A stretch of DNA of 64,000 bases from Scylla paramamosain (lineage: Eukaryota; Arthropoda; Malacostraca; Decapoda; Portunidae): assembly GCF_035594125.1 (NCBI RefSeq), contig NC_087172.1:22829430-22893429 (forward strand), read 5' to 3'. Below the pieces are notes generated by a model. That model searched no databases and was not told the DNA's origin. It saw only the letters and a program-made list of their open reading frames with translations. A program made the translations under genes and the position numbers. Shown one piece after another: positions 3,001 to 58,800 of the stretch (positions are counted from its first letter, which is position 1; every line of letters begins with the position of its first letter).

Positions 3001-5782
3001 ATGCGATTGCCCTGCTTTTTAGTGCTTTATTGCCTATCAGGCTCAAAAACACTCAAAAGACTTTTTTCTGGTAATGTCATTTTTTTCTCACATAAAGCTG
3101 GTTTCGCATGCAATTTGAGGTTTTGGTAACTAAGTATGTGAAAAGCTCTCAAAATACACGCATTTAGTAAGGTTGTTCTGTTTCTCAATTAGGAATGTTA
3201 TTCATGAGTTTCAGCATTTTGGTATCTAGGAAACTTCTCCATATCCTCAAGTTTTTGCGTTTTTTGCCTTTTGGTTCTTTTGAACTAGAAAACACTCATT
3301 ATACACTTTTCTTGCAATGTCCTTTTATTTCCTAATATAGAGTGCTTTGCATCAATTTTCGCGTTTTTTGTAGGTAACAAGCTTAAAAACACTCAAAATA
3401 TACCTTTTTGGTAATGTTTTTCTATTTTTTTTTTTTTTAATTGGTTGGTTTCCATCCGTTTATCGTTTTTTCTACGTAAGACACTGAGAAGACACGTTTT
3501 CAGTAGTTTTGTTTGGATTCCCATATAGAGTGAGTTCCTCATTCATTTATCGTTTTGGTGCCTAACATTCTGAAAAACACTCAAAAGACAGATTTCTTTT
3601 AAGGTCGTTTAATTTCCTCATATAGGAGGCTTTGCATGCACTTTAGGGTTTGGTATATAACAGTCCGAAAAAAAAGCTAAAGTTAACTTTTTTGATAATT
3701 TTCTTTTATCATATAATAGCCCGGAATTTTCCCAGAATTTTGGCATCTCGGTACCTATGAAGATGAATAACAAAAAAAAAAATCCTATTTTTTTATTTTT
3801 ATTTATATATTTTTCTAAATAATGAGTGTTATTTGTGGGTTTTAGCTTTTTGGTACTTAAGGAACTAAAAAAAACACTCATAATACATATTTCTCGTAAT
3901 GTCCTTTCGTTTCCCAAACATAAGGTTCTTTGCATGTATTTAAGCGTTTTTATAGATAACATGATCAAAAACACTCAAAATACATATTTTTGGTAATGTT
4001 ATTCTGTTTCTCCATAAAAGGTGTTTTGCATGCGTTTTAGCGTTTTGGTATGTAATGAGCTCAAAAACATTTAAAGGCAAGTTCTTGGTAAAAGTTGGTT
4101 TTATTCCCATGTAATGTGATTGCCCTGCTTTTTAGTGGTTTATTGCCTAACACGCTCAAAAACACTCGAAAGACATTTTCTGGTAATATTTTTTTCCCAC
4201 ATAAAGCTAGTTTCGCATGAAATTTGGGGTTTTGGTAACTAAGAATGTGAAAAACACTCAAAATACAGGCATTTAGTAAGGTTGTTCTGTTTCTTATTTA
4301 AAAGGGTTATTCATGAGATTCAGCATTTTGGTATGTAAGAAACTTCTTTATGTACACGAGTTTTTGAGTTTTTTGCCTTGTGGTTCTTGTGAAACTATAA
4401 AACACTCATTATACACGTTTCTCGTAATGTCCTTTTCTTTCCTAATATAGAGTGCGTTTCATCCATTTTCGCATTTTTTTGTATGTGACAAGCTCAAAAA
4501 CACATCAAAATATATCTTTTTGGTAATGTTATTCTATTTCTTCATATTGGTTGGTTTGCATCCGTTTTAGCTTTTTTCTACGTAAATCACTGAAAAGACA
4601 CGTTTTCAATAATATTGTTCAAATTGCTGAAAAAAACAAACACTCAAAAGACAGGTTTCTGGTAAAGTCGAGTAATTTCTCCATATAGGTGGCTTTGCAT
4701 GCAGTTCAGGGTTTGGTACATAACTCCGGAAGAAAGCTAAAATTATTTTTTTATAATGAATTTCTTTTACAAAATTTCCCTGAATTTTTCCAGAATTTTG
4801 GTACCTATGAAGATGAATAACAATTTTTTTTTTCTCTCTATAAAGTGTTATTTGTGTGTTTTAGCTTTTTAGTACTTAAGGAACTTAAAAACACTCATAA
4901 TACACGATTTTCTTAATGTCCTTTTCTTATAGGAACATAGGGTTCTTTACATGTATTTAAGCGTTTTTATAAGTAACATGATCAAAAACACTCAAAATAC
5001 ATATTTTTGGTAGTTATTCTGTTTCTCCATAAAGGGTGTTTTACATGCGTTTTAGCGTTTTGGTATGTAAGGAGTTAAAAAAAACACTTAAAGGCAAGTT
5101 CTTCGTAAAAGTTGGTTTTATTCCCAAGTTATGTGATTTTTCTGGTTTTTAGTGCTTTGTTGCATATCACGCTCAAAAACACTTAAAAGACGTTTTTCTG
5201 ATAATGTCATTTAAGCGTTTTTATTGGTAACATGATCAAAAACACTAAAAACACATGTCTTTGGTAATGTTATTCTGTTTCACCATAAAGTGTATTTTGC
5301 ATGCGTTTTAGTGTTTTGGTATATAAGGAGCTCAAAAAGACTTAAAGGCAAGTTCTTATTAAAAATTGGTTTTATTCCAATGTAATGTGATTGCCCCCCT
5401 TTTTAGTGCTTTATTGCCTAACACGCTCAAAAACACTCAAAAGACATTTTTTTTCTGGTAATGTCATTTTTTTCCCACATTAAGCTGGTTTTGCATGCAA
5501 TTTGGGGTTTTGGTAACTAAGAATGTGAAAAGCACTCAAAATACACACATTTAGTAAGATTGTTCTGTTTCTCAATTAAGAGTGTTGTTCATGAGTTTCA
5601 GCATTTTGGTATCTATGAAATTTCTTCATATACACTAGTTTTTGCATTTTTTGCCTTGTGGTTCTTTTGAACTATAAAACACTCATTATACACTTTTCTT
5701 GCAATGTCCTTTTCTTTCCCATTATAGAGTGCTTTGCATCAATTTTCGTGTTTTTTATAGGTAACAAGCTCAAAAACACTCA
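1..5782 (+). repeat. Complex satellite array, left arm, forward orientation
   Basis: Diverged ~97-bp monomers, most starting with AAAAACACTCAAAA-like sequence, follow each other in the fixed order A-K. HOR starts (monomer A) are visible near 874, 1758, 2854, 3967, 4984 and 5238. Intervals are therefore about 884, 1096, 1113, 1017 and 254 bp. The short intervals come from monomer deletions: D joins directly to G near 1270 (E and F lost), and C joins K near 5207 (D-J lost). The array stops inside the start of monomer F at about 5782. AT-rich, no coding potential. Orientation is named '+' by convention here. Confidence 0.93.
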
Positions 5783-6401
<619 letters not shown>

Positions 6402-11464: not shown

Positions 11465-13080
11465 TTGAAAGGTTGCCTGATGGGATCCCTCCTATTGTTC
11501 TCCAAAACTGTGCCTCCGTGCTTGCACCTTGCCTAGTCAAACTCTTTCAACTCTGTCAACATCTACCTTTCCTTCTTGCTGGAAGTTTGCCTACATTCAG
11601 CCTGTTCCTAAAAAGGAAGACTGTTCTAATCCCTCAAACTACCATCCTATTGCTTTAATTTCCTGCCTATCTAAAGTTTTTGAATCAATCTTCCTCAAGA
11701 GGAAGATTCTTAAACATCTGTCACTTCACAACCTTCTATCTGATCACCGTATGGGTTCTGTCAAGGCCGCTCTACTGGTGATCTTCTGGGTTTCCTTACT
11801 GAGTCTCAGTCATCTCTTTTAGAGATTTTGGTGAACCTTTTGCTGTTGCCTTGGATATATCAAAAGCTTTTGATAGAGTGTGGCACAAAGCTTTGATTTC
11901 CAAACTACCTTCCTATGGCTTGTGTCCTTCTCTCTGTAACTTCATCTCAAGTTTCCTTTCTGACCATTCTGTTGCTGCTGTGGTAGATGGTCACTGTTTT
12001 TTCCTAAATCTATTAACAGTGGTGTTCCTCAGGATTCTGTCCTGGCACCCACTCTCTTCTTATTATTCATCAATGACCTTCTAAACCAAACTTCTTGTCC
12101 TATCCACTCCTACACTGATGATACCATCCAGCACTTCTCCACATCTTTTTATAGACATCCAACCCTTCAAGAAGTAAACATTTCACGCAGGGAAGCCACA
12201 GAACACCTGAGTTCTGATCTTTCTAAAATTTCTGATTGGGGCAGAGCAAACTTGGTATTGTTTGTTGTCTCAAAACTCAATTCCTCCATCCATCAACTCG
12301 ACACAACCTTCCAGACAACTATCCCCTCTTCTTCAGTGACACTCAACTGTCCCTCTTCTACACTGAACATCCTCGGTCTGTCCTTTACTTATAATCTGAA
12401 CTGGAAACTTCACATCTCATCTCTAGCTAAAAACAGCTTCTATGAAGTTAGGTGTTCTGAGACATCTCTGCCAGTTTTTCTCACCCACCCCCACACTGCT
12501 AACTCTGTACAAGGGCCTTATCCGTGCATGTATGGAGTATGCTTCACACGTCTGGGAGGTTCTACTATTACTGTTCTTCTAGACAGGGTGGAATCAAAAG
12601 CTTTTCGTCTCATCAACTCCTCTCTTCCAGCTGACTGTCTTCAGCCTCTGTTCATCGCTGCAATATTGCATCTCTAGCTATCTTCTACTGCAGTTTTCAA
12701 GCTAGCTGCTCTTCTGATCTTGCTAACTGCATGCCTCTCCTCCTCCTGCAGCCTTGCTGCATAAGACTTTCTTCATTCTCTCACCCCTATTCTGTCCACC
12801 TCTCTAATGCAAGAGTTAACTGGTATTCTCAATCATTCATCCCTTTCTCTGGTAAATTCTGGAACTTCCTACCTGCTTCTGTATTTCCACCTTCTTATGA
12901 CTTGAATTCCTTCAAGAGGGAGGAGGTTTCAAGACACTTATCCTTTAATTTTTGACTACCGGTTTGGACCCTTTTCTGGAACTAGCATCACAGTGGGCTT
13001 TTTTTTTATTGGATTTTTGTTGCCCATGGCCAGTGTCCCTCCTAGGTAAAAAAAAAAAAAGAAAAAAGAAAAAAGGGGGG
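11465..13080 (+). pseudogene. Non-LTR retrotransposon reverse transcriptase to 3' end, frameshifted
   Basis: Starts inside the fingers domain with PDGIPPIVLQNCASVLAPCL. It continues after frameshifts with FAYIQPVPKKEDCSNPSNYH, ALDISKAFDRVWHKALISKL, GVPQDSVLAPTLFLLFINDL and the catalytic box YTDD at 12111-12122. Then come a thumb-like region (LNILGLSFTYNLNWKLHISS) and a C-terminal tail WNFLPASVFPPSYDLNSFKR ending at TGA 12953. The 3' UTR runs to an A-rich stretch around 13048-13095. No APE endonuclease is present, so it is 5' truncated. Its tail and 3' UTR match the fragment at 8121-8335, so both are the same family. It is inactive because of several frameshifts. Confidence 0.88.
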
Positions 13081-14227: not shown

Positions 14228-15684
14228 AGAATATAAGAACATAAAAAATGGAAGCTGCAAGAAACCATCAGGCATACATGTGGCAGTTCCTGTATGAAAT
14301 ATACTTACCTATTTCCACCTATCAATCCCCATCCATAAATCTCTAATTTTCTCTTAAAGCTTCCTAATGACCCAGCACCAACAACCTGATTACTGAGTCC
14401 GTTCCATTCATCTACCACTCTATTTGAGAACTGATTCCTTCCTATCTCTTTTTTAAACTAAATTTTTCAAGCTTAAAACTGTTATTTGTTGTTCTATCCT
14501 GGTTACTAATCCTAAGAATTTTGCTTACATCCCCTGTATTGTAACCCTTATAGCATTTAAAGACTTCTATCAGGTCCCCTCTTAACCTACATCTCTCTTA
14601 ATGTAAATTTAACAGCTTCAATCTCTCTTTGTAAGGAATACTCCTCACTCCTTGTATCCTTTTAGCCATTCTCCTTTGTATTGATTCTAAAAGACCTATA
14701 TACTTCCTGTAATATGGGGGACCAGAACTGCACAGCATAATATAGATGAGGTCTGACCAGCACCAAATATAACTTTAATATTACTTCGGGACTTCTACTT
14801 TTAACATTCTTAAAAATAAATCCTAATATCCTATTTGCCCTGTTTCTGGCCTCTATGCATTGCTTTCTTATATGGAATTTAGAGCTAACTATAAATTCTA
14901 AATCTTTTTTGTACCTTAAACCTACCAGGGGTTCATTGTTTATTGTGTACCTTCTGTGTGGATTTCCTCTACTTATGCTAAGTACTTTACATTTTTTTAT
15001 ATTAAACTGCATTTGCCATCTGTCTGTCCATTCGTTCATCCTATCCAAATCTGCCTGCAAGGGAATGGCATCCAATTCTAATCTAATTAATCTACCTATC
15101 TTCGTGTCATCCTCAAATTTACTAACGTCACAACTAATTCAACTATCCAAGTCACTGATGTATATTAAAAACATCAATGGCCCTTATACTGATCCCTGTG
15201 GCACCCCACTAATTACTTAATCCCACTCCGATTTAGAGCTGTTTATTATGACTCTGTCGCCTGTCACTTAGCCACAACCTTATCCACCCTAACACCTTCC
15301 CATCTATTCCGTGTGCCCTAACCTTTCTCAGGAGCCTCTGATGGGGTACCTTGTCAAACACTTCACTGAAGTCCAGATATAGGATGTCATAACTATCAGC
15401 ATTATCTCCTGCCATGTAAACTTTACAGTAAAATCTTGACAAGTTTGTCAGGTAAGACTTCCCCTTTGTGAAGCTATGCTGTGACCAATTTATCAAGTTA
15501 TGTTTGTCTAAATGTTCCCTAATGTTCTTTACTATTACAGACTTCATTATTTTATCTACAACAGAAGTTAAGCTTAAATCTCCTTTCTTAAAGCTTAAAC
15601 TTGCCTCCACATTACCGGTATCTCAAGTGATTTCCTAAAGGCAGAAACTAACAGTTCACTAATAACTTCTTTGCATTCCTTAAG
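14228..15684 (-). pseudogene. CR1-like non-LTR reverse transcriptase, 3' portion (minus strand)
   Basis: Read on the minus strand from 15684 downward: LKECKEVISELL; a short deletion in the fingers; LSLTSVVDKIMKSVIVKNI; the palm block YLDFSEVFDKVPHQRLLRKV; LSDRR; a GTPQGSV-like box; and FEDD at 15106-15117, a changed FADD. The connection and thumb follow, with LDRMNEWTDRWQMQFNIKKC, then RPHLYYAVQFWSP and a C-terminal FSNRVVDEWNGLSNQVVGAG block. The 3' end near 14228-14260 has TTCTTATATTCTTATG-type short repeats, common at CR1/L2 ends. Stops and frameshifts are present. Its 5' continuation lies at 17314-17510, beyond the Penelope-like insertion. Confidence 0.88.
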
Positions 15685-15697
15685 TACTCTGGGATAT
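15685..15697. repeat. Target site duplication, left copy
   Basis: TACTCTGGGATAT, identical to 17301-17313 on the other side of the Penelope-like insertion. Confidence 0.9.
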
Positions 15698-15770
15698 GAA
15701 CTGTTCATGTTGACAAGTAGTTGGGTTTAGGAAGGGGGATAAAAACCCAGGGAGGAGTTAGGATTCTTTT

Positions 15771-15812
15771 AATCTCTAACATTTTGGCTGAATAGCCATC
15801 CTCAGAGAGACT
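15771..15812 (-). ncRNA. Hammerhead-ribozyme-like motif, left inverted copy (core mutated)
   Basis: On the minus strand: AGTCTCT, CTGAGGA, T, GGCT-ATTC-AGCC, AAAA, TGTT, AGAGATT. Stem II is fully paired here (GGCU/AGCC), unlike the right copy. However, the invariant G of GAAA has become A, and the stem III palindrome ACGT is now ATGT. It is therefore predicted to be inactive. Comparing the two copies suggests an ancestral motif with both an intact stem II and GAAA. Confidence 0.62.
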
Positions 15813-15886
15813 GATTTACATGAGTGAAAACACACTATTTATAACAACATACAAAATTTTCTCATTTGACATTCGTACAGAGTATT

Positions 15887-16341
15887 GCCATCCTGGCGTG
15901 TACCTCACCTAATTTTATTTTCCTATTCAGGTGGCATTATCCGCCTACGTGACGAGCCTTTACTGGGGATTTTCCTTGTACCTGACCTGAGGGCCAATCT
16001 GGCGGAATTACCCGCCCACCTGATAAAACCTTCTCTGTGGTTAATGACTCCCCTAGTTGTTATGAGGGCTGCCTCTATAGCTTTTCTTATTCTTTTCTTC
16101 AATCCAACTTTAATTTCTTAGCCTCTTCCCATTTTGGTAGGTGTTTACATTTTTCTATGTGCAATACAAGGGAGTTTGATGTGTTGCATTTTAAAACATC
16201 TTTCCTATGCTCTGCTATTCTTGTTTTAAGTCCCCTGCCTGTTTCTCCTATGTACTGCTTTGTACAACCTTTGCATGGTATGCTGTACACTACGCTGTTA
16301 TTATTAACAAGTGAATGAATGTCCAATAAGGACGATTTCAT
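15887..16341 (-). pseudogene. Penelope-like GIY-YIG endonuclease (left, inverted copy)
   Basis: Read on the minus strand, the frame starting at 16341 carries LVNNNSVVYSIPCKGC, KQYIGETGRGLKTRIAEHRK and DVLKCNTSNSLVLHIEKCKH. It stops at 16099 because one base is missing relative to the right copy near 16117-16121 (EEAKKLKLD instead of EEAKEIKVGLK). The remaining C-terminal part (RKAIEAALITTRGVINH, REGFIRWAGNSARLAL) lies in another frame down to about 15887. The first ten residues before LVNNN come from the junction sequence, not from the element. Confidence 0.85.
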
Positions 16342-17080
16342 TCACTACCTTTCAGCCCACAGCATGAGAGTCAAATCTGATGTGATTATTGGTTTTTACT
16401 TAAGAGCGTTCAGAATTTGCAGCAACAACTTCCTAGAGCAAGAAATATGATATATCATATCAACTTTCAAAAAGCTGGGTTATCCTGAAGGGCTCCTTGT
16501 TAGGCTTAAGAATAAGGCAAAGAAAATAACAACTGAAAACAAAGAGAATAAAGATCTCTGTACAACCAGCAAAAGAGAGAGTTATACATGTGTACCAAAT
16601 TCGGACAAGGCTTCCATAATTAATAAATATTTGTCTAGAACAGGATTAAAAATAGCAACATTAGCGGGAGAGAAAATTGGTGAGCTAACGAGGACTAAAG
16701 AGACCGGACTTGTTAATAATAACAGCGTAGTGTACAGCATACCATGCAAAGGTTGTACAAAGCAGTACATAGGAGAAACAGGCAGGGGACTTAAAACAAG
16801 AATAGCAGAGCATAGGAAAGATGTTTTAAAACACAACACATCAAACTCCCTTGTATTGAACATAGAAAAATGTAATCACCTACCAAAATGGGAAGAGGCT
16901 AAAGAAATTAAAGTTGGATTGAAGAAAAGAATGAGAAAAGCTATAGAGGCAGCCCTCATAACAACTAGGGAAGTCATTAACCACAGAGAAGGTTTTATCA
17001 GGTGGGCGGGTAATTCCGCCAGATTGGCCCTCAGGTCAGGTACAAGGAAAATTCCCAGTAAAGGCTCGTCACGTAGGTGA
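16340..17080 (+). pseudogene. Penelope-like ORF: RT thumb end plus GIY-YIG endonuclease (right copy)
   Basis: The frame from 16340 reads IHYLSAHSMRVKSDVIIGFY, LRAFRICSNN and FLEQEI, then an in-frame TGA at 16448-16450. It continues with YIISTFKKLGYPEGLLVRLK to the end at 17080. The downstream part holds the endonuclease: NNNSVVYSIPCKGCTKQYIG, then ETGRGLKTRIAEHRKDV. These are the VYSIPC and YIG segments and the arginine of the TRIAEH block expected for the GIY-YIG fold, with cysteines typical of Penelope-like proteins. The catalytic reverse-transcriptase core is absent, so this is a 5' truncation. In a full element the protein would nick target DNA and prime reverse transcription. The start is set by homology; the first in-frame ATG after the stop is at 16631. 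Confidence 0.87.
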
Positions 17081-17208
17081 ATAATGCCACCTGACTAGGA
17101 AAATAAAATTAGGTGAGGTACACGCCAGGATGGCAATACTCTGTACGAATGTCATATGAGAAAATTTTGTTTGTTGTTATAAATAATGTGTTTTCACTCA
17201 TGTAAATC

Positions 17209-17250
17209 AGTCTCTCTGAGGATGGCTATTCAGCTGAAACGTTAGAGATT
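17209..17250 (+). ncRNA. Hammerhead-ribozyme-like motif in the Penelope-like terminal region (right copy)
   Basis: The order fits a type I hammerhead. The stem I strand AGTCTCT (17209-17215) is followed by CTGAGGA (17216-17222; the core CUGANGA with N=G), one extra T, and stem II GGCT/AGCT around ATTC (17224-17235). Then come GAAA (17236-17239), a minimal self-complementary stem III ACGT (17239-17242), H17=T at 17243, and the returning stem I strand AGAGATT (17244-17250). Stem I pairs over 7 positions with one G-U. Hammerhead motifs of this minimal type are an established part of Penelope-like terminal repeats. The extra U next to stem II is a departure. Activity is not shown. Confidence 0.68.
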
Positions 17251-17300
17251 AAAAGAATCCTACCTCCTCCCTGGGTTTTATCCCCCTTCCTAAACCCAAC

Positions 17301-17313
17301 TACTCTGGGATAT
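17301..17313. repeat. Target site duplication, right copy
   Basis: TACTCTGGGATAT, identical to 15685-15697. Its first bases TAC also continue the inverted repeat of the element, so the exact edge is uncertain by about 3 bp. Confidence 0.9.
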
Positions 17314-17510
17314 ATTTCATCTGGTCTTGGTGTCTTGAACTTTCTTAGCCTATCTATCACCTGTTCCACTATCTCCTTAATTATGGTAATATCTTTCAGC
17401 TTCTCATTCTCTTCTGCTCTAAAAATTTCACTATCCAGCATTTCCTGCATGTTTTCCTGGGTGAAGACAGTTAAAAAATACTTCTTCAGAATTTTACTAA
17501 TCTACTCCCC
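17314..17510 (-). pseudogene. CR1-like non-LTR element, 5' continuation of the split copy
   Basis: The minus strand reads KKYFLTVFTQENMQEM, then a linker, then IVEQVIDRLRKFKTPRPDEI, the segment just before the reverse-transcriptase fingers of CR1-like elements. Removing the insertion and one copy of the target duplication joins EIYPRV directly to LKECKEV with the frame kept. This shows that 14228-15684 and this piece are one element split later. The sequence beyond 17510 is not recognised. Confidence 0.85.

Positions 17511-19031: not shown

Positions 19032-20330
<1,299 letters not shown>

Positions 20331-21321: not shown

Positions 21322-21406
<85 letters not shown>
21322..21406. repeat. (TA)42 microsatellite
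   Basis: Perfect AT/TA run of about 85 bp followed by a short ACACACAC. Confidence 0.97.

Positions 21407-23007: not shown

Positions 23008-23097
<90 letters not shown>
23008..23097. repeat. (AT)45 microsatellite
   Basis: Perfect AT run of 90 bp. The 11-bp word TATGCTTGGCT occurs on both sides (22987-22997 and 23095-23105). Confidence 0.97.
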
Positions 23098-34400: not shown

Positions 34401-37400
34401 TAATGTCCTTTCGTTTCACAAACATCGGGTTTTTTGTATGTATTTAAGTGATTTTATAGGTAACATGATCAAAAACACTCAAAATACATGTTTTTGGTAA
34501 TGTTATTCTGCTTCTCCATAAAGGTTGTTTTGCATGCGTTTTGGTATGTAAGGAGTTAAAAAACACTTAAAGGCAAGTTCTTCGTAAAATTTGGTTTTAT
34601 TCCAGTGTAATGTGATTGTTCTGCTTTTTAGTGTTTTATTGCATATAACGCTTAACAACACTCAAAAGACACTTTTCTGGTAATGTCATTTTTTTCCCGC
34701 ATAAAGCTAGTTTCGCATGTAATTTGGGATTTTCGTAACTAAGAATGTGAAAAACACTCAAAATACACACATTTGGTAAGGGAGTTCTGTTTTTTCAATT
34801 AAAAGTGTTATTCATGAGATTTAGCGTTTTGGTATGTAAAAAACTTCTCTATATATACGAGTTTTTGCGTTTTTTGTCTTGTGGTTCTTGTGAAACTATA
34901 AAACACTCATTATACACGTTTCTCGTAATGTCCTTTTGCTTCCTAATATAGAGTGCTTTCCATCCATTTGCGCGTTTTTTGTAGTTAAAAAGCTCAAAAA
35001 CACTTTTTTGGTAATGTTATTCTATTTCTTCATATTTTTTTGGTTTGCATCCGTTTTAGCGTTTTTCTACGTAAAACACTGAAAAGACATGTTTTCAGTA
35101 ATTTTGTTTTGGATTCACATATTGACTGACTTCCATATTATTTATCGTTTTGGTGCCTAACATTCTGAAAAACACTGAAAAGACAGATTTCTGGTAAAGT
35201 CGTTTAACTTCCTTAAATAGGTGGCATGCACTTTATAGTTTGGTACATAAAAATCCGAAAAAAAAGAGCTATAATTAACTTTTTTGATAATGTTCTTTTT
35301 TCCACATAAATTTCCTGAATTTAGGCAGAAATTTGGCATCTTGGTACCTATGAAAATCAATTACTACTTACGGAACAGTTAAAAACACTTAAAGGTATTT
35401 AAGGAACACTTAAAAACACTTAAAAACACTTAAAACACATGTTTTTAGAAATGTTATTCTGCTTCTCAATAAAGGAGTTTTTTGCATGCGTTTTAGCGTT
35501 TTGGTTTGTAAGGAGGTCAAAAACACTTCAAGGCAAGTTCTTGGTAAAAGTCGATTTTATTCCCATGTAATGTGATTGCCCTGTTTTTTTTGTGTGATTT
35601 ATTGCCTAACACGCTGAAAAACACTCAAAAGACACTTCTAGTAATGTCATTTTTTTTTCCAACATAGTTTCGCGTGCTATTTGGGGTTTGCCTAAGAATG
35701 TGAAAAACACTCAAAATACACGCATTTGGTAAGGTTGTTCTGTTTCTCAATTAATATTGTTATTCATGAATTTCAGCATTTTGGTATCTAAGAAATTTCT
35801 TTATATACACGAGTTTTTTGCGTTTTTTGCCTTGTGGTTCTTGTGAACCACAAGTTCTTTTACTCAAAAATAATAAGACACTCATTATACACGTTTCTCG
35901 TAATGTCTTTTTGTTTCCCAATAGGGAGTGCTTTGCATCCATTTTCGCGTTTTTTTATAGGTAGCAAGCTGAAAAACACTCAAAATGTACCTTTTTGGTA
36001 ATGTTATTTTTTTTTTGTTATTGGTTGGTTTGCATCCGTTTTAGCGTTTTTCTACGTAAAACACCAAAAAGACATTTTTTCAGTTATTTTGTTTTAGATT
36101 CCCATATAGAGTGATTTGCATGTTATTTACCGTTAGGGTGCCTAACAAGCTGAAAAAACACTCAAAAGACAGTTTTCTGGCAAAGACGTTTAATTTCCAA
36201 ATATAAGTGGCTTTGTATGCACTTTAGGGTTTGGTACATGACAGTACGAATAAAAAAAAGCTAAAATTAACTTTTTTGATAATCGACTGATAATTTCCTA
36301 AATTTTGCCCAAATTTTGGCATCTCGGTACCTGTGAAGATGAAAAAGAAAGAAAAAAATATACCTTTTGGTAATATTTTTCTATTTTTTTTATATTGGTT
36401 GGTTTGCATCCGTTTTAGCGTTTTTCTACGTAAAACACTGAGAAGACACGTTTTCAGTAGTTTAGTTTGGATTCCCGTATAGAGTGAGTTCCTTATTTAT
36501 TTATCGTTTTGGTGCTTAACATTCTGAAAAACACTCAAAAGACAGATTTCTATAAAGGTCGTTTAATTTCCTCATATAGGAGGAGGCTTTGCATGCACTT
36601 TAGGGTTTGGTATATAAAAGTACGAAAAAAAAGCTAAAATTTTTTGATAATTTTCTTTTATCAGATAATAGCCCGGAATTTTCCCGGAATTTTTGCATCT
36701 CGGTACCTATGAAGATGAATAACAAAAAAAAAAAAAAAAAAAATCCTATTTTTTTATATTTTTTATTTATTTTTTTTTCTAAATAATGAGTGTTATTTGT
36801 GGGTTTTAGCTTTTTGGTACTTAAGGAACTAAAAAACAATCATAATACATATTTCTCGGAATGTCCTTTCGTTTCCCAAACATAAGGTTCTTTGCATGTA
36901 TTTAATCGTTTTTTATAGATAACATGATCAAAAACACTCAAAATACATATTTTTGGTAATATTATTCTGTTTCTCCATAAAAGGTGTTTTGCATGCGTTT
37001 TAGCGTTTTGGTATGTAATGAGCTCAAAAACACCTAAAAACAAGTTCTTAGTAAATGTTTTTTTTTATTCCCATGTAATGTGATTGCCCTGCTTTTTATT
37101 GGTTTATTGCCTAACACGCTCAAAATTACTCGAAAGACATTTTCTGGTATTATTATTTTTTTCCCACATAAAGCTAGTTTCGTATGGAATTTGGGGTTTT
37201 GGTAACTAAAAATGTGAAAAACACTCAAAATATAGGCATTTAGTAAGGTTGTTCTGTTTCTTAATGAAAATTGTTTTTCATGAGATTCAGCATTTTGGTA
37301 TGTAAGAAACTTCTTTATGTACACGAGTTTTTGAGTTTTTTGCCTTGTGGTTCTTGTGAAACTATAAAACACTCATTATACTCGTACACGTTTCTCGTAA

Positions 37401-40400
37401 TGTCCTTTTCTTTCCTAATATAGAGTGCGATTCATCCATTTTCGCATTTTATTTGTAGGTGTTAAGCTCAAAAAACATATCAAAATATATTTTTTTGGTA
37501 ATGTTATTCTATTTCTTCATTTTGGTTGGTTTTCATCCGTTTTAGCGTTTTTCTACGTAAATCACTGAAAAGACACGTTTTCAGTAATATTGTTGAAATT
37601 GCTGAAAAAAAACACTCAAAAGACAGATTTCTGGTAGAATTGAGTAATTTCTCAATATAGGTGGCTATGCATAAACTTCAGGGTTTGGTACATAACGCCA
37701 GAAAAAAAGCTAAAATTATTTTTTTTATAATGATTTTTTTTTTTTTTACAAAATTTCCCTGAATTTTTTCCAGAATTTTGGTATCTCGGTTCCATTTTTT
37801 CTCTCTCTCTATAAAGTGTTATTTGTGTGTTTTAGCTTTTTGGTACTTAAGGAACTTAAAAACACTCATAATACATGATTTTCTTAATGTCCTTTTCTTA
37901 TACAAACATAGGGTTCTTTACATTTAAGCGTTTTTATAAGTAACATGATCAAAAATACTCAAAAAACATATTTTAGGTAATGTTATTCTGTTTGTCCATA
38001 AAGGGTGTTTTACATGCGTTTTAGCGTTTTGGTATGTAAGGAGTTAAAAAACACTTAAAGGCAAGTTCTTCGTAAAAGTAGGTTTTATTCCCAAGTTATG
38101 TGATTTTTCTGCTTTTTAATTCTTTGTTGCATATCACGCTCAAAAACACTTAAAAGACTTTTTTTCTTGTAATGTCAAAATACATGGTAATGTTATTCTG
38201 TTTCACCATAAAGTGTATTTTGCATGCGTTTTAGTGTTTTGGTATATAAGGAGCTCAAAAACTCTTAGAGGCAAGTTCTTATTAAAAATTGGTTTAATTG
38301 CAATGTAATGTGATTGCTCTGCTTTTTAGTGTTTTATTGCCTAACAATCTCAAAAACACTCAAAAGACATTTTTCTGGTAATGTCTTTTTTTTTTTTCCA
38401 CATGAAGGAGGTTTCGCATGCAATTTAATAAGATTGTTCTGTTTCTCAATTATGAGTGTTGTTCATGAGTTTCAGCATTTTGGTATCTACGAAACTTATT
38501 CATATACACTAGTTTTTGCATTTTTTGCCTTAAGGTTCTTTTGAACTATAAAACACTCATTATACACTTTTCATACAATGTCCTTTTCTTTCCCATTATA
38601 GAGAGCTTTGCATCAATTTTCGTGTTTCTTATAGGTAACAAGCTCAAAAACACTCAAAATATACCTTTTTGGTAATGTTGTTCTATTTCTTTATATTGGT
38701 TTGTTTGCATCCGTGTTAACGTTTTTCTACATAAAACACTGAGAAGACACGTTTTTAGTAATTTTGTTTTGAATTACCATATATAGTGAGTTCCTTATTA
38801 TTTATTGTTTTGGTGCTTAACATGCTGAACAACACTCAAAACAGAGATTTCTGATAAGGTCGTTTAATTTCCTCATATAGGAGGCTTTGCATGCACTTTA
38901 GGGTTTGGTACATAACAGTTTGGTACATAACAAAAATGTACATAAGGTACATTTTTGATAATATTCTCTTATCATATAATTGCCTTGAATTTTTCCAGAA
39001 TTTTGGCATTTCGATACCTATGAAGATGAATAACAAAAGAAAAAAAAAATCCTATTTTTAAATTTTTTTATTTATTTTTTTTCTAAATAAAGAGTGGGTT
39101 TTATGTTTTTGGTACTTAAACTTAAAAACACTCATAATATACGTTTCTCGTAATGTCCTTTAGTTTCCCAAACATAAGGTTCTTTGCATGTATTTAAGCG
39201 TTTTTATAGATAACATGATCAAAAACACTCAAAATACAAGGTTTTGATAATGTTATTCTGTTTCTCCATAAAGTGTGTTTTGCATGCGTTTTAGCAGTTT
39301 TGTAGATAAGGAGCTCAAAAACACTTAAAGGCAAGTTCTTGTTAAAAAATGGTTTTATTCCAATGTAATGTGATTGTCCTGCTTTTGAGTGCTTTATTAC
39401 CTATCACGTTGAAAAAAAAAACATTCAAAAGATACTTTTATGGTAAAGTAATTTTTTTTCCCCACAAAGCTATTTTTGCATGTAATTTGGGGTTTTTGGT
39501 AAATAAAAATGTGAAAAGCACTCAAAATACACGCATTTAGTAAGGTTGTTCTGTTTCTCAATTAAGAGTGTTATTCATGAGTTTCAGCATGTTGGTATCT
39601 AAGAAATCTCTCCATATACACGAGTTTTTGCGTTGTTTGCTTTGTGGTTCTTTTGAACTATAAAACACTTATTATACACTTTTCTTGCAATGTCCTTTTT
39701 GTTTCCCAATATAGAGTGCTTTGCATCAATTTTCACATTTTTGTAGGTAAAAAGCTCAAAAACACTGAAAATGTACCTTTTTGGTAACGTTTTTCTATTT
39801 CTTGATATTGGTTGGTTTGCATCCGTTTTAACGTTTTTGTACGTAAAACATTGAGAAGACACGTTTTCAGTAACTTTGTTTTGGATTCCCATATAGAGTG
39901 AGTTCCTTATTATTTGTCATTTTGGTGCCTAACATGCTAAAAAACACACAAAACACAGATTTCTGGTAAGGTCGTTTAATTTTCTCATATTGGAGGCTTT
40001 CCATGCACTTTAAGGTTTGATACATAACAGTCCGAAAAAAAAGCTGAAATTAACTTTTTTCATAATGTTCTTTCATCACATAATTGCCCTGAAGTTTCCG
40101 AGAATTTTGGCATCTCGGTATCTATGAAGATGAATTAATTTTTTTAATTTTTTAATTTTTTTATTTTTTAAATAAAGAGTGTTATTTGTGAGTTTTAGCT
40201 TTTTGGTACTTAAGGAACTTATAAAAACACTCATAATAATCGTTTCTCGTAATGTCCTTTTGTTTCCCAAATATAATGTTCTTTGCATGTACTTAAGCGT
40301 TTTTATAGATAACATGATCAAAAACACTCAAAATACATGTTTTTGGTAATGTTATTCTGTTTCTCCATAAAGTTTGTTTTGCATGCGTTTTAGCCGTTTT

Positions 40401-46475: not shown

Positions 46476-49400
46476 ATGCAAAGCCTTCCATATAAGGAAA
46501 TTAAAGACCTTACCAGAAATCTGTCTTTTAAGTGTTTTTCAGCATGTTAGGCACTAAAACGATAAATAATAAGGAACTCACTCTCTGTGGGAATCCAAAA
46601 GAAAATTACTGAAAACGTGTCTTCTCAGTGTTTTACGTAAAAAAAAATCGCTAAAACTGATACAAACCAACCAATATAAAAAAGCACAAAAACATTACCA
46701 AAAATGTATATTTTGAGTGTTCTTGAGCTTGTTACCTACAAAAAAAAAAACGCGAAAATGGATACAAAGCACTCTGTATTGGGAAACAAAGGGACATTGC
46801 GAGAAAAGTGTATAATGAATGTTTTATAGTTCAAAAAAACCACAAGGCAAAAAACGCAAAAACTCGTGTGTATGGAATAGTTTCCTATATACCAAAATGC
46901 AGAAACTCATGAATAACACTCTTAATTGACAAACAGAGCAACTTTACTAAATGCGTGTCATAAAAACTAAAAGGCAAGTTCTTCGTAAAAGTTGGTTTGA
47001 TTCCCATGTAATGTGATTGCCATGCTTTTTAGTGCTTTATTGCCTAACACGCTCAAAAACACTCAAAGACACTTTTCTGGTAATGCCATTTTTTTTCCCA
47101 CATAAAACTAGTTTCGCATGGAATTTGGGGTTTTGGTAACTAAGAATGTAAAAAAAACACTTAAAATACACGCATTTAGTAATGTTGTTCTGTTTCTTGA
47201 TTAAGAGTGTTATTCATGAGTTTCAGTATTTTGGTATCTTAGATTCTTCTCCATATAGTCGAGTTTTTGCGTTTTTTGCCTTGTGATTCTGGTGAAAGTA
47301 TAAAACACTCATTATACACGTTTCTCATTATGTCCTTTTTTTTTCTTATATAGAGTGCTTTGCATCCATTTTCGCTTTTTTTTTATGTAACAAGCTCAAA
47401 AACACACAAAATATACTTTTTTGGTAATGTTATTCTATTTCTTCATATTGGTTGGTTTCCGTCCGTTTTAGCGTTTTTCTACGTAAATCTTTTAAAAGAC
47501 ACGTTTTCAGTCATTTTGTTTTTGATTTCCATATAGAGTGACTTTCATATTATTTATCGTTTTGGTGCCTAACATGCAGAAAAACACTCAAAAGACAGAT
47601 TTCTTGTAAAATCGTTAAATTTCATCAGATAGGTGGTTTGCATACACTTTTTGGTTTGAAACATAACTCCGAAAAAAAAAGTAAAACTAGTTTTTTCGAT
47701 AATGTTTTTTCCACATAATTTCCCTGAATTTTGGCAAAATTTTGGCATCTTGGTACCTATGAACATCAGTAACAAAAAAATAAAAATGCTATTTTTTATT
47801 TTATTTTTTTTTCTATAAAGAGTGTTATTTGTAGGTTTTAACGTTTTGGTACTTAAGGAACATTAAAACATTCATAATACACATTTCTCGTAATGTCCTT
47901 TCTTTTCCAAAATATGGGGATCTTAACATGTATTTAAGCGTTTTTATAGGTAACATGATAAAAAAACACTCAAAACACTTATTTTTAGTAATGTTATTCT
48001 GCTTCTCCATAAAGGAGTGTTTTGCATGCGTTTTAGTGATTTGGTATGTAAGGAGCTGAAAAACACTTCAAGGCAAGTTCTTGGTAAAAGTTGGTTTTAT
48101 TGCAATGTAATATGATTGCCCTGCTTTTTAGTTCTTTATTGCCTAAGACGCTCATAAACACTGAAAAGATACTTTTTGTTATGTCATTTTTTTCCCACAT
48201 TAAGGTTGTTTCGCATGCTATTTAGGGTTTTGGAAAAGAATATGAAAAAAAAACCCTCAAAATACACTCATTTGGTAATGTTGTTCTGTTTCTCAATTCA
48301 GATTTTTATTCTTGAGTTTCAGCATTTTGGTATCTAAGAAACTTCTTTATATATACGAGTTTTTGCGTTTTTTGCCTTTTGGTTCTTGTGAACCACAAGT
48401 TCTTTTGCCCGAAAATAATAAGACACTCATTATACATATTTCTCGTAATCTCCTTTTCTATCCCAATAGGGAGTGCTTTGCATCCATTTTCGCGTTTTTT
48501 GTAGGTAACAAGCTCAAAAACACTAAAAATATACCTCTTTGGTAATGTTTTTCTATTTCTTCATATTGGCTGGTTTTAATCTGTTTTAGCGTTTTTCTAC
48601 GTAAAACACCGAAAAGACACGTTTTCAGTAATTTTGTTTTCGATTCCCAAAGAATATTGCCAGAATTTTGGCATCATAGTATCTATGAAGATGAATAAAA
48701 AAAAAAAAAATACATATTTTATTTTATTTTTTTTTCTCTATAAAGTGTGTTATTTGTGGGTTTTAGCTTTTTTTGTACTTAAGGAACTTAAAAACACTCA
48801 TAATACACGTTTCTCGAATGTCCTCTTGTTTCCCCAAAAAAGGGTTCTTTACATGTATTTAAGCGTTTTTATTGGTAACATGATCAAAAACCCTCAAAAT
48901 ACATGTTTTTAGTAATGTTCTACTGTTTCACCATAAAGTGTATTTTGCATGCGTTTTAGTGTTTTGGTACATAAGGAGCTCAAAAACACTTAAAGGCAAG
49001 TTCTTGTTAAAAATTGGTTTTATTCCAATGTAATGTGTTTGCCCTACTTTTTAGTGCTTTATTGCCTAACACTCTCAAAAACACTCAAAAGACATTTTTC
49101 ATAGTAATGTCATTTTTTACCCACGTAAAGCTGGTTTCGCATGCAATTTGGGATTTTGGTAACTAAGAATGTGAAAAACACTCAAAATACACGCATTTAG
49201 TAAGATTGTTCTGTTTCTCAATTAAGAGTGTTGTTCCAGAGTTTCAGCATTTTAGAATGTAAGAAACTTCTCTATATACACGTGTTTTTACGTTTTTTGC
49301 CTTGTAGTTCTTGTGAAACTATAAAACACTCATTATATACGTTTCTTGTAATGTCCTTTTGCTTCCGAATATAAAGTGCTTTCTATCCATTTTCGCGTTT

Positions 49401-55800: not shown

Positions 55801-58800
55801 GAATTTTCCCAGAATTTTGGCATTTCGGTATCTATGAAGATTAATAACAAAAAAAATCCAATTTTCTTATTTTCTTACTTTTTTTTTGTAAATAAAGAGC
55901 GTTATTTGTGGGTTTTAGCTTTTTGGTACTTAAGGAACTTAAAAACACTGATAATACACGTTTCTCGTAATGTCCTTTCGTTTCGCAAACATAAGGTTTT
56001 TTGCATTTATTTAAGCGTTTTTATAGATAACATGATCAAAAACACTTAAAATATATGTTTTTGGTAATTTTATTCTGTTTCTCCATAAATGGTGTTTTGC
56101 ATGCGTTTTAGCGTTTTGGTATGTAATGAGTTCAAAAACACTTAAAGGCAAGTTCTTGGTAAAAGTTGTTTTAATTCCCATGTAGTATGATTGTCCTGCT
56201 TTTTAGTGCTTTATTGCCTACCACGCTCAAAAACACTCAAAAGACACTTTTTTTGGAAATATCATTTTTTTTCCCACATAAAGCTAGTTTTGCATGGAAT
56301 TTGAGGTTTTGGTAACTAAGAATGTGAAAAAAAACTCAAAACACAGGCAATTAGTAAGGTTGTTCTATTTCTTAATTAAAAGTGTTATTCATGAGTTTCA
56401 GCATTTTGGTATGTAAGAAACTTTTCTAATACACACATTTGGTTAGGTATTTCTGTTTCAAAATTAAAAGTGTTATTCATGAGTTTCAGCTTTTTGGTAT
56501 GTAAGAAACTTCTTTATGTACACGAGTTTTTGAGTATTTTACCTTGTGGTTCTTGTTATACTATAAAACACTCATACTCGTTTCTCGTAATGTCCTCTTC
56601 TTTGCCAATATAAAGTGCTTTCTATCCATTTTTGCATTTTTAGTAGGTAACAAGCTCAAAAACTCATCAAAATATATTTTTTTGGTAATGTTATTCTATT
56701 TCTTCATATTGGTTGGTTTGCATCCGTTTTTTGCGTTTTTCTACGTAAATCACTGAAAAGACACGTTTTAAGTAATATTGTTGAAATTGCTGAAAAACAC
56801 TCAAAAGACAGGTTTCTAATAAAGTTGTGCAATTTCCCCGTATAGGTGGATCTGCATGCACTTTAGAGTTTGTACATAACTCCGGAAAAAACTTAAAATT
56901 ATTTTTTTTATAATGATTTTTTTTTTACAAAATTTCCATGAATTTTGCCAGAATTTTGGCATCTCGGTAGCTATGAAGAAGAATAAAAATTTCTCTCTAT
57001 AAAGAGTTATTTGTGGGTTTTAGTTTTTTGGTAGTTAAGGAACTTAAAAACACTCATAATACACGATTTTCGTAATGTCCTTTCATTTTCCAATCATAGG
57101 GTTCTTTGCATGTATTTAGACATTTTTATGGGTACCATGATCAACAACTCTCAAAATACATGTTTCTTGTAATGTTATTCTGTTTCTCCATAAAGGGTGT
57201 TTCGCATGCGTTTTAGCGTTTTGGTATGTAAGAAGCTCAAAAACACGTAAAGGCAGGTTCTTGGTAAAAGTTGGTTTTATTCCCATATAATGTGATTGCC
57301 CTCTTTTTTAGTGCTTTAGTGCCTATCACGTTCAAAAACACTCAAAAGACACTTTTCTGGTAATGTCATTCTTTTCCCACATAAAGCTAGTTTCGCATGC
57401 AATTTTTGGTTTTGGTAACTAAGAATGTGAAAAGCACTCAAAATACATGCATTTGGTATGGTTGTTCTGTTTCTCAATTAAGAGTGTTATTCATGAGTTT
57501 CAGCATTTTGGTATCTAAGAAATCTCTCCATATACACGAGTTTTTGCGTTGTTTGCTTTGTGGTTCTTTTGAACTATAAAACACTCAGTATACACTTTTC
57601 TTGCAATGTCCTTTTGTTTCCCAATATAGAGTGCTTTGCATCAATTTTCGCGTTTTTGTAGGTAAAAAGCTCAAAAAACACTCAAAATATACATTTTTGG
57701 TAACGTTTTTCTATTTCTTGATATTGGTTAGTTTCCATCCGTTTTAACGTTTTTCTACGTAAAACACTGAGAAGACACGTTTTTAGTAACTTTGTTTTGG
57801 ATTCCCATATAGAGTGAGATCCTTATTATTTATCGTTTTGGTGCCTAACATGCTAAAAAAAACACACAAAACACAGATTTCTGGTAAGGTCGTTTAATTT
57901 CCTCATATTGGAGGCTTTGCATGCACTTTAGGGTTTGGTACATAAAAGTCCGAAAAAAAAGCTGAAATTAACTCTCCATATACACGAGTTTTTGCGTTGT
58001 TTGCTTTGTGGTTCTTTTGAACTATAAAACAATCATTTTACACTTTCCTTGCAATGTCCTTTTGTTTCCCAATATAGAGTGCTTTGCATCAATTTTCGAG
58101 TTTTTGTAGGTAAAAAGCTTAAAAACACTCAAAATATACCTTTTTGGTAACGTTTTTCTATTTCTTGATATTGGTTGGTTTGCATCCGTTTTAACGTTTT
58201 TCTACGTAAAATACTGAGAAGACACGTTTTGAGTAACTTTGTTTTGGATTCCCATATAGAGTGAGTTCCTTATTATTTATCGTTTTGGTGCCTAACATGC
58301 TGAAAAACACAGAAAACACAGATTTCTGGTAAGGTCGTTTAATTTCCTTATATTGGAGGCTTTGCATGCACTTTAGGGTTTGGTACATAAGTCCGAAAAA
58401 AAAAAGCTGAAATTAACTTTTTTGATAATATTCTTTTATCACATAATTGCCCTGAATTTTCCCAGAATTTTGGCATCTCGGTACCTATGAAGATGAATAA
58501 CAAAAAAAAATATCCTATTTATTTTATTTTTTTATTTTTCATTTTCTAAATAAAGAGTGTTATTTGTGAGTTTTAGCTTTTTGGTACTGAAGGAACTTAT
58601 AAAAACACTCATAATACACGTTTCTCGTAATGTCCTTTTGTTTCCCAAACATAATGTTCTTTGCATGTACTTAAGCGTTTTCATAGATAGCATGATCAAA
58701 AACACTCAAAATATACGTTTTTGGTAATGTTATTCTGTTTCTCCATAAAGTTTTTTTTTTATGCGTTTTAGCGGTTTGGTATATAAGGGGTTAAAAAACA

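What the first reader, a model, noticed from the sequence alone, without database searches (positions are those of the whole stretch)
15771..17250. Hammerhead-ribozyme-like motifs in both outer arms of an inverted Penelope-like pair
Seen: the right copy has AGTCTCT, CTGAGGA, GGCT-ATTC-AGCT, GAAA, self-complementary ACGT, T, AGAGATT, in the order of a type I hammerhead with 7 bp of stem I. The left copy has the same layout on the other strand but with GAAA changed to AAAA and ACGT to ATGT. Known: Penelope-like elements carry minimal hammerheads with very short stem III, thought to act as dimers. Inferred: this crustacean-like family retains the motif, the right copy may still cleave, and the left is dead. 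The inverted arrangement would place two ribozymes facing opposite ways in one transcript. The extra U before stem II is unusual.
Basis: partly seen in the sequence, partly recalled or inferred. Interest (0 to 1): 0.8.

Follow-up and report, generated by a model that had tools for sequence, protein, structure and literature searches.

The report
Decaying hammerhead ribozymes in inverted retrotransposon
A dead, double-ended fragment of a Penelope-type jumping gene in an animal genome carries two worn copies of the small self-cutting RNA that such elements are known to carry; the ribozyme is ordinary for its kind, but the way the two halves are joined records how the element inserted itself.

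Summary
The motifs are real. At 17209-17250 (+) and 15771-15812 (-) lie two minimal type I hammerheads, at the outer (3') ends of a head-to-head pair of 5'-truncated Penelope-like elements (PLEs). A full descriptor matches once in the window and never in 2000 shuffles. The three differences between the motifs are all CpG-type decay from one shared core: the left lost G12; the right keeps the core but has a G·U at the base of stem II. The pair interrupts a LINE frame between 9-13-bp target duplications. Minimal hammerheads in PLE pseudo-LTRs, inverted pLTRs, an optional tail and junction palindromes are published, so this is a new member of a known kind. Corrections: a spanning transcript would hold one ribozyme, masked by the other's complement, not two. 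The extra U belongs to an AUG, apparently as in the Anolis PLE, and occurs in viral-contig hammerheads. The ORF start probably lies 69 nt beyond the cut, in a tail only the left copy has. Unequal tails and a fold-back junction fit priming from both target strands. Cleavage is untested; family covariation could not be tested.

The parts
17209..17250 (+). Right hammerhead motif; stem I 17209-17215 / 17244-17250, core 17216-17222, extra U 17223, stem II 17224-17227 / 17232-17235, GAAA 17236-17239, minimal stem III 17239-17242, cut after 17243
15771..15812 (-). Left hammerhead motif, core G12 changed to A, ACGU changed to AUGU; probably inactive
16323..17304 (+). Right PLE copy, 5'-truncated: part of the ORF downstream of the RT core (in-frame stop at 16448-16450), GIY-YIG endonuclease, pLTR with hammerhead; ends without tail
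15716..16312 (-). Left PLE copy, 5'-truncated further than the right one; 97.1% identical to it over the shared part
15698..15715 (-). 18-nt tail present only on the left copy; reads TGTCAAC ATG AAC AGT TC in element sense, probable first codons of the PLE ORF (M-N-S); inferred
15685..15697 (.). Left target-site duplication TACTCTGGGATAT
17301..17313 (.). Right target-site duplication TACTCTGGGATAT; its first 4 bases also match the element's end, so the duplication is 9 to 13 bp
16310..16346 (.). Inverted junction: 10-bp palindrome 16310-16319 / 16337-16346 around GTCC-AATAA-GGAC (16321-16333)
17222..17245 (+). AUG inside the hammerhead; in its frame 7 codons, then UAG spanning the predicted cut
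14662..17501 (-). Presumed host LINE reverse transcriptase interrupted by the pair; RVT_1 is matched only at 15233-15622, the right flank is assigned by the frame that stays open for 89 codons across the joined flanks (DEIYPRV-LKECKEV)
   Evidence: (E 2e-11)

Best explanation
The two motifs are the degenerating minimal type I hammerhead ribozymes of one family of endonuclease-containing Penelope-like retrotransposons, kept because each copy in this inverted insertion retains the element's 3' pLTR. In an intact, tandemly arranged element the hammerhead would cut the RNA about 69 nt before the main start codon, probably as a dimer through the self-complementary ACGU or with help of the PLE protein, giving unit-length RNA (inferred; not shown here). 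In this locus the ribozymes are passengers: the copies are 5'-truncated, the left lacks G12, and both drift. The pair itself most likely arose in one insertion in which both target strands primed reverse transcription, starting at two neighbouring sites, and the two cDNAs were joined through a short fold-back and a 3-nt microhomology (inferred).
For: Shown: full hammerhead descriptor 1 hit, 0 in 2000 shuffles. GIY-YIG protein relatives: 13 with E<=1e-3, conserved YIGETGRG..R..EH. Pair, 97.1% identical over 598 columns with 17 substitutions and 2 gap columns; 6 of 17 substitutions CpG-type, including 3 of 3 within the 42-base motif, as expected of neutral decay of one shared core. Insertion unit: identical 13-bp stretches at both flanks and a LINE frame open for 89 codons across the joined flanks. 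Tail: 18 nt only on the left end, no match of 10 bases or more elsewhere in the window, starting M-N-S like some full-length relatives (P0017 MINSH.., P0047 MNSNN..). Literature: minimal hammerheads in PLE pLTRs, lacking helix III (passages of PMC6155905, PMC7761336); PAc cleaves and extends both strands, starts internally at two sites that bound the tail, and carries a protein-assisted hammerhead (main-text section of PMC11167929); inverted pLTRs with a tail on one of them, 8-10 bp duplications and junction palindromes (passages of PMC3846280).
Against: No Rfam match. The best fold of the 42 nt is not the hammerhead register (-12.0 against -8.4 kcal/mol right; -14.2 against -10.3 left; stem III and tertiary contacts not modelled), and the right motif's fold is not exceptional (z -1.04, 25 of 200 shuffles fold as well). 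No other family copies could be compared, so no covariation. The motif diverges no slower than the rest (3 of 42 against 14 of 554 compared columns), so nothing shows selection on it here. On the role: in PAc, hammerhead-dead RNA inserted as well as wild type in vitro and no reads began or ended at the cut, so cutting may not serve insertion. On the extra U: a passage in PMC11014351 says an extra core nucleotide weakens a viroid hammerhead, and PMC3088659 passages report core insertions that lower activity. The tail does not fold into a stable stem-loop (z about +1.2), unlike the AC-rich stem-loop of PAc.
Confidence: 0.85

Rival explanations
1. The match is a chance resemblance in AT-rich repeat DNA and was never a ribozyme.
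For: No Rfam hit; core alone expected 0.58 times per window; the preferred fold is another register.
Against: Full descriptor 0 in 2000 shuffles with stem I of 5 bp or more; it lies in the pLTR of a PLE, where published PLE hammerheads lie; Rfam at gathering also misses 23 of 23 submitted stem-complete motifs in viral contigs.
Confidence: 0.05
2. The inverted pair was made by self-priming (snap-back) of one template, as proposed for bdelloid Penelope elements, rather than by priming from both target strands.
For: Junction palindrome of 10 bp plus GTCC/GGAC with a 5-nt loop; PMC3846280 reads such palindromes as self-priming on an antisense template.
Against: A simple snap-back copy of the right arm should carry the right arm's outer end and 5' extent. 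The left arm instead has an 18-nt tail that the right lacks and, beyond the short palindrome, omits about 364 element bases (16347-16710, give or take the shared ACT). A jump during self-priming on a longer antisense RNA could still give this.
Confidence: 0.35
3. The right hammerhead is still a working ribozyme that processes host transcripts.
For: C3-A9 core, GAAA, U17 and 7-bp stem I all present.
Against: G-U wobble at the base of stem II, competing fold, 5'-truncated copy, and a spanning transcript would bury it in a duplex with the left arm. Transcription was not examined.
Confidence: 0.15
4. Two separate insertions or a later recombination placed the copies head to head.
For: The copies differ by 2.9% and in 5' extent.
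Against: One duplication flanks the pair as a unit and the arms meet at a short palindrome without a stretch of host DNA between.
Confidence: 0.07

Closest known systems
Minimal type I hammerheads of Penelope-like elements (Cervera and de la Pena 2014; Lunse et al. 2017; neither held, known here from reviews and reference lists)
   Same: Type I order, minimal stem III, in the PLE pLTR, short self-complementary ACGU that fits dimer action
   Different: I saw no description of this family in the passages I could read; both copies are decayed
PAc (Poseidon of Anolis carolinensis) hammerhead and insertion reaction (PMC11167929)
   Same: Hammerhead next to the pLTR-ORF junction with an AUG at the start of stem II (by the text; figure not seen); two neighbouring ends that differ by a tail; both target strands can be extended
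   Different: In PAc that AUG starts the ORF and RT starts mostly 111-118 bp into it; here the AUG is closed after 7 codons, the ORF start seems to lie 91 nt downstream, and the two ends lie at about -8 and +11 of it
Bdelloid Penelope elements with inverted pLTRs (PMC3846280)
   Same: Inverted pLTR, tail on one of them, TSD (8-10 bp there, 9-13 here), junction palindrome, one family inserted in a non-LTR retrotransposon
   Different: Here both arms are 5'-truncated and both carry endonuclease sequence
LINE-1 twin priming (recalled)
   Same: Inverted join inside one insertion with TSD
   Different: As recalled, the twin-primed parts do not both carry the 3' end; here both arms do

Membership tests
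Type I hammerhead ribozyme | C3UGANGA9 and G12AA core | tested here: met
   Right copy exact apart from one extra U after A9; left copy has A for G12
Type I hammerhead ribozyme | Stems I and II can form, open end at stem I | tested here: met
   Stem I 7 bp with one G-U wobble; stem II 4 bp, one G-U wobble in the right copy; but the lowest-energy fold is another register
Type I hammerhead ribozyme | Match to a hammerhead covariance model | tested here: not met
   No Rfam hit; at gathering the models also miss 23 of 23 submitted stem-complete motifs in viral contigs, so weak
Type I hammerhead ribozyme | Compensatory changes in related copies | not testable with these tools
   No DNA relatives; own-genome search unanswered 13 times
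Type I hammerhead ribozyme | Self-cleavage after U17 | not testable with these tools
   Bench assay
Minimal PLE hammerhead | Stem III absent or of about 2 bp without loop, in the pLTR | tested here: met
   ACGU with no loop, 61-62 nt from the element's shared 3' end
Penelope-like element (EN+) | C-terminal GIY-YIG endonuclease related to PLEs | tested here: met
   13 relatives; PF01541 itself falls just under its cut-off, 20.8 against 22.6 bits, E 4.7e-4
Penelope-like element (EN+) | RT domain in the same ORF | tested here: inconclusive
   Copies truncated before the RT core; the relative P0012 carries PF00078 and the YIGETGRG motif in one protein
Penelope-like element (EN+) | Inverted pLTR, optional tail, short TSD | tested here: met

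The most novel reading that the evidence does not exclude
The locus is a genomic footprint of two-ended target-primed reverse transcription by a PLE: both target strands primed cDNA on two RNAs, one from the distal start site (tail) and one from the proximal, and the cDNA ends joined by a short fold-back and an ACT microhomology. If general, unequal tails on the two arms would explain inverted pLTRs without an antisense template, and would make the in vitro finding that a PLE extends both strands testable in genomes. In addition the AUG inside the hammerhead may be a leftover start codon that became a mini-uORF whose stop codon spans the cut, while the ORF start moved downstream.
Probability: 0.4. 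Interest if true: 0.5.

Novelty: new member of a known kind. Interest (0 to 1): 0.3.

Why it matters
The ribozyme itself is expected: the reviews seen in passages say that PLE sequences from diverse animals carry such motifs, with an unknown role. The locus is useful because one insertion preserves both ends, their unequal tails and the inner junction, which bear on how PLEs make inverted copies, left open in PMC3846280 and not settled in PMC11167929. It also separates the hammerhead from the start codon, while the hammerhead-to-end spacing (61-80 nt) stays near the 85-92 nt that I reckon from the PAc figures (start at 111-118, cut at 26).

Tried and rejected
Rfam at gathering and at E up to 10: no hammerhead; the weak CRISPR-repeat, lncRNA and snoRNA matches listed there (9 to 17 bits) are far below cut-off and were dropped. 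Relatives of the endonuclease in viral contigs and genome contigs, by single sequence and by alignment: none confirmed. Phage and plasmid records: none. Exact family patterns in viral contigs: 0 matches for three patterns. Protein N-termini as a test of AUG-in-hammerhead in other PLEs: 0 of 38 full-length relatives (740 aa or more, of 133 proteins held; one search listed only the best 120 of 985) show ET[SFLYIVT] or RN[VI] within the first 15 residues; the third frame (KR) was not counted, so the test says little. Tail as a stem-loop: not supported. Not held: the papers of Cervera 2014, Lunse 2017 and Arkhipova 2017; one search used a recalled DOI for Lunse 2017 that was wrong.

Full report
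Observation. Right: + strand 17209-17250. Left: - strand 15812-15771. The order is stem I strand, CUGAGGA, one extra U, stem II GGCU/AGCU (left GGCU/AGCC) with loop AUUC, GAAA (left AAAA), CGU (left UGU), U, stem I strand. CUGAGGA is a legitimate core, because position 7 is variable in hammerheads (recalled). The predicted cut follows 17243. A descriptor with core, stem II, GAAA, minimal stem III, UH and stem I of 5 bp or more hits once in 64 kb (the right motif) and 0 times in 2000 dinucleotide shuffles; with stem I of 4 or 3 bp the shuffles gave 3 and 7 hits. I built the descriptor after seeing the motif. The core alone is not significant.

Covariance models. Rfam gave no match at gathering in the window and no hammerhead at E up to 10 around the locus. 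To weigh this I looked at viral-contig loci found by patterns. Of 8 loci with CTGANGA-U-GGC..GCC-GAAACGT, 6 complete a hammerhead (3 type III, 3 type I); L006 and L007 do not. Of 23 loci without the U, 18 do (6 and 12); some of these share the same core and are not independent. With shuffled flanks 1.1% complete a type III and 1.6-1.9% a type I. At gathering Rfam called none of the 6, and none of the 17 that I submitted of the 18; it did call three type II hammerheads elsewhere in L002, L019 and L026. Rfam silence is therefore weak evidence, and an extra U before stem II is compatible with otherwise complete hammerheads. Against this, passages of PMC11014351 and PMC3088659 report that extra core nucleotides can weaken a hammerhead.

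Context. The right arm encodes a GIY-YIG endonuclease (PF01541 E 4.7e-4, just under the family's cut-off) with 13 protein relatives, one at 95% identity over 55% of the query and one named, from Portunus trituberculatus. The arms are 97.1% identical over 598 columns, with 17 substitutions and 2 gap columns. The right arm spans 16323-17304 and the left 15716-16312, so both are 5'-truncated and both have their 3' ends outward. The right arm's frame carries a stop at 16448-16450.

Decay. Of the 17 substitutions 6 are of CpG type, and all 3 that fall in the 42-base motif are of that type: one site reads CA on the left and TG on the right, the other TG and CG. The simplest reading is one shared core with CpG at both places, from which both copies decayed. 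The left lost G12, which is essential by established hammerhead chemistry (recalled). The right kept G12 but has a G-U wobble at the base of stem II. The motif is not better conserved than its surroundings (3 of 42 against 14 of 554 compared columns), so nothing here shows selection.

Folding. For both motifs the lowest-energy fold is a shifted register of the CUCUCU repeat (-12.0 against -8.4 kcal/mol for the hammerhead register on the right, -14.2 against -10.3 on the left; stem III and tertiary contacts not modelled). Folding of the right motif is not exceptional (z -1.04); that of the left is stronger than most shuffles (z -2.47). A + strand transcript of the whole pair folds into a long hairpin in which 41 of the 42 bases of the right motif pair with the complement of the left. 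One transcript therefore does not present two opposed ribozymes. It presents one, masked.

The extra U and the start codon. The U makes an AUG (A9-U-G10.1) at 17222-17224. [quoted passage not shown] its figure was not seen), so the same placement is likely there. Here the frame is closed after 7 codons in both copies (MAIQLKR* and MAIQPKC*), and the stop spans the predicted cut. The left end has 18 further nucleotides, reading TGTCAAC ATG AAC AGT TC. Among 38 full-length relatives (740 aa or more, out of the best 120 of 985 listed and the 13), 9 begin MN and 13 MS, and P0017 and P0047 begin MINS and MNS. I infer that the ORF of this family starts in the tail, 91 nt after the hammerhead AUG and 69 nt after the cut. 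This is suggestive, not shown.

Insertion. Identical 13-bp stretches (TACTCTGGGATAT) flank the pair at 15685-15697 and 17301-17313; the first four bases also match the element's end, so the duplication is 9 to 13 bp. Joined flanks give a frame open for 89 codons with DEIYPRV-LKECKEV at the join, as expected of one insertion into a LINE (RVT_1 E 2e-11 for 15233-15622; the right flank alone has no RT match). At the inner junction a 10-bp palindrome (16310-16319 / 16337-16346) surrounds GTCC-AATAA-GGAC. About 0.4% of random window positions start a 10-bp inverted repeat with a loop of 20 or less (793 of 200000; the window's dinucleotide repeats count in this). The left arm joins the palindrome through AGT. 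Bdelloid Penelope elements show inverted pLTRs, a tail on one of them, TSDs and such palindromes, read there as self-priming on an antisense template (PMC3846280, passages). PAc protein extends both target strands and starts at two sites that bound the tail (PMC11167929). The unequal tails and 5' extents here fit both-strand priming, followed by a short fold-back and microhomology joining, better than a plain snap-back. A self-primed copy with a jump on a longer antisense RNA is not excluded. My two searches for this idea (titles listed of 113 and of 104) gave listings; besides the two papers named I looked only at passages of PMC12910113, which did not address it. I make no claim that it is unpublished.

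Role. What the hammerhead does in PLEs is unsettled. In PAc, hammerhead-dead RNA inserted as well as wild type in vitro, RNA-seq reads did not begin or end at the cut, and cleavage needed the protein; the same paper mentions earlier self-cleavage of a PLE hammerhead in 3-25 mM magnesium. My reading that it trims tandem transcripts to unit length is inference.

Known or new. Reviews state that PLE sequences from diverse taxa carry minimal type I hammerheads lacking helix III, in pLTRs, with role unknown, possibly acting as dimers (PMC6155905, PMC7761336, PMC7229834; passages). The primary papers were not held. The finding is a new member of a known kind, decayed. Covariation across the family, the decisive test, could not be made: no DNA relatives were found in the collections scanned (the tools say that records of the window's own genome may be left out there) and the search of the window's own genome did not complete (13 attempts).

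Noticed in passing
window 11964-12677: Another reverse-transcriptase fragment (RVT_1 E 1.2e-4, below cut-off).
   Followed up: no
window 3870-4046, 4951-5469, 36832-37009, 37976-38385, 48790-48965, 56326-56507: Dispersed tandem modules of about 88-254 bp, several with similar consensus units (such as TTTAAGCGTTTTTAT in three of the six as printed); perhaps one repeat family, not compared.
   Followed up: no
window 5939-6038, 19035-19162, 21322-21406, 23008-23097: Perfect dinucleotide arrays of 42-64 units.
   Followed up: no
L001-L031: 24 of 31 viral-contig loci found by two core patterns complete a type I or III hammerhead by my stem test; Rfam's gathering cut-offs called none of the 23 submitted; three loci (L002, L019, L026) also hold a type II hammerhead about 1.1-1.4 kb from the pattern match.
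   Followed up: partly
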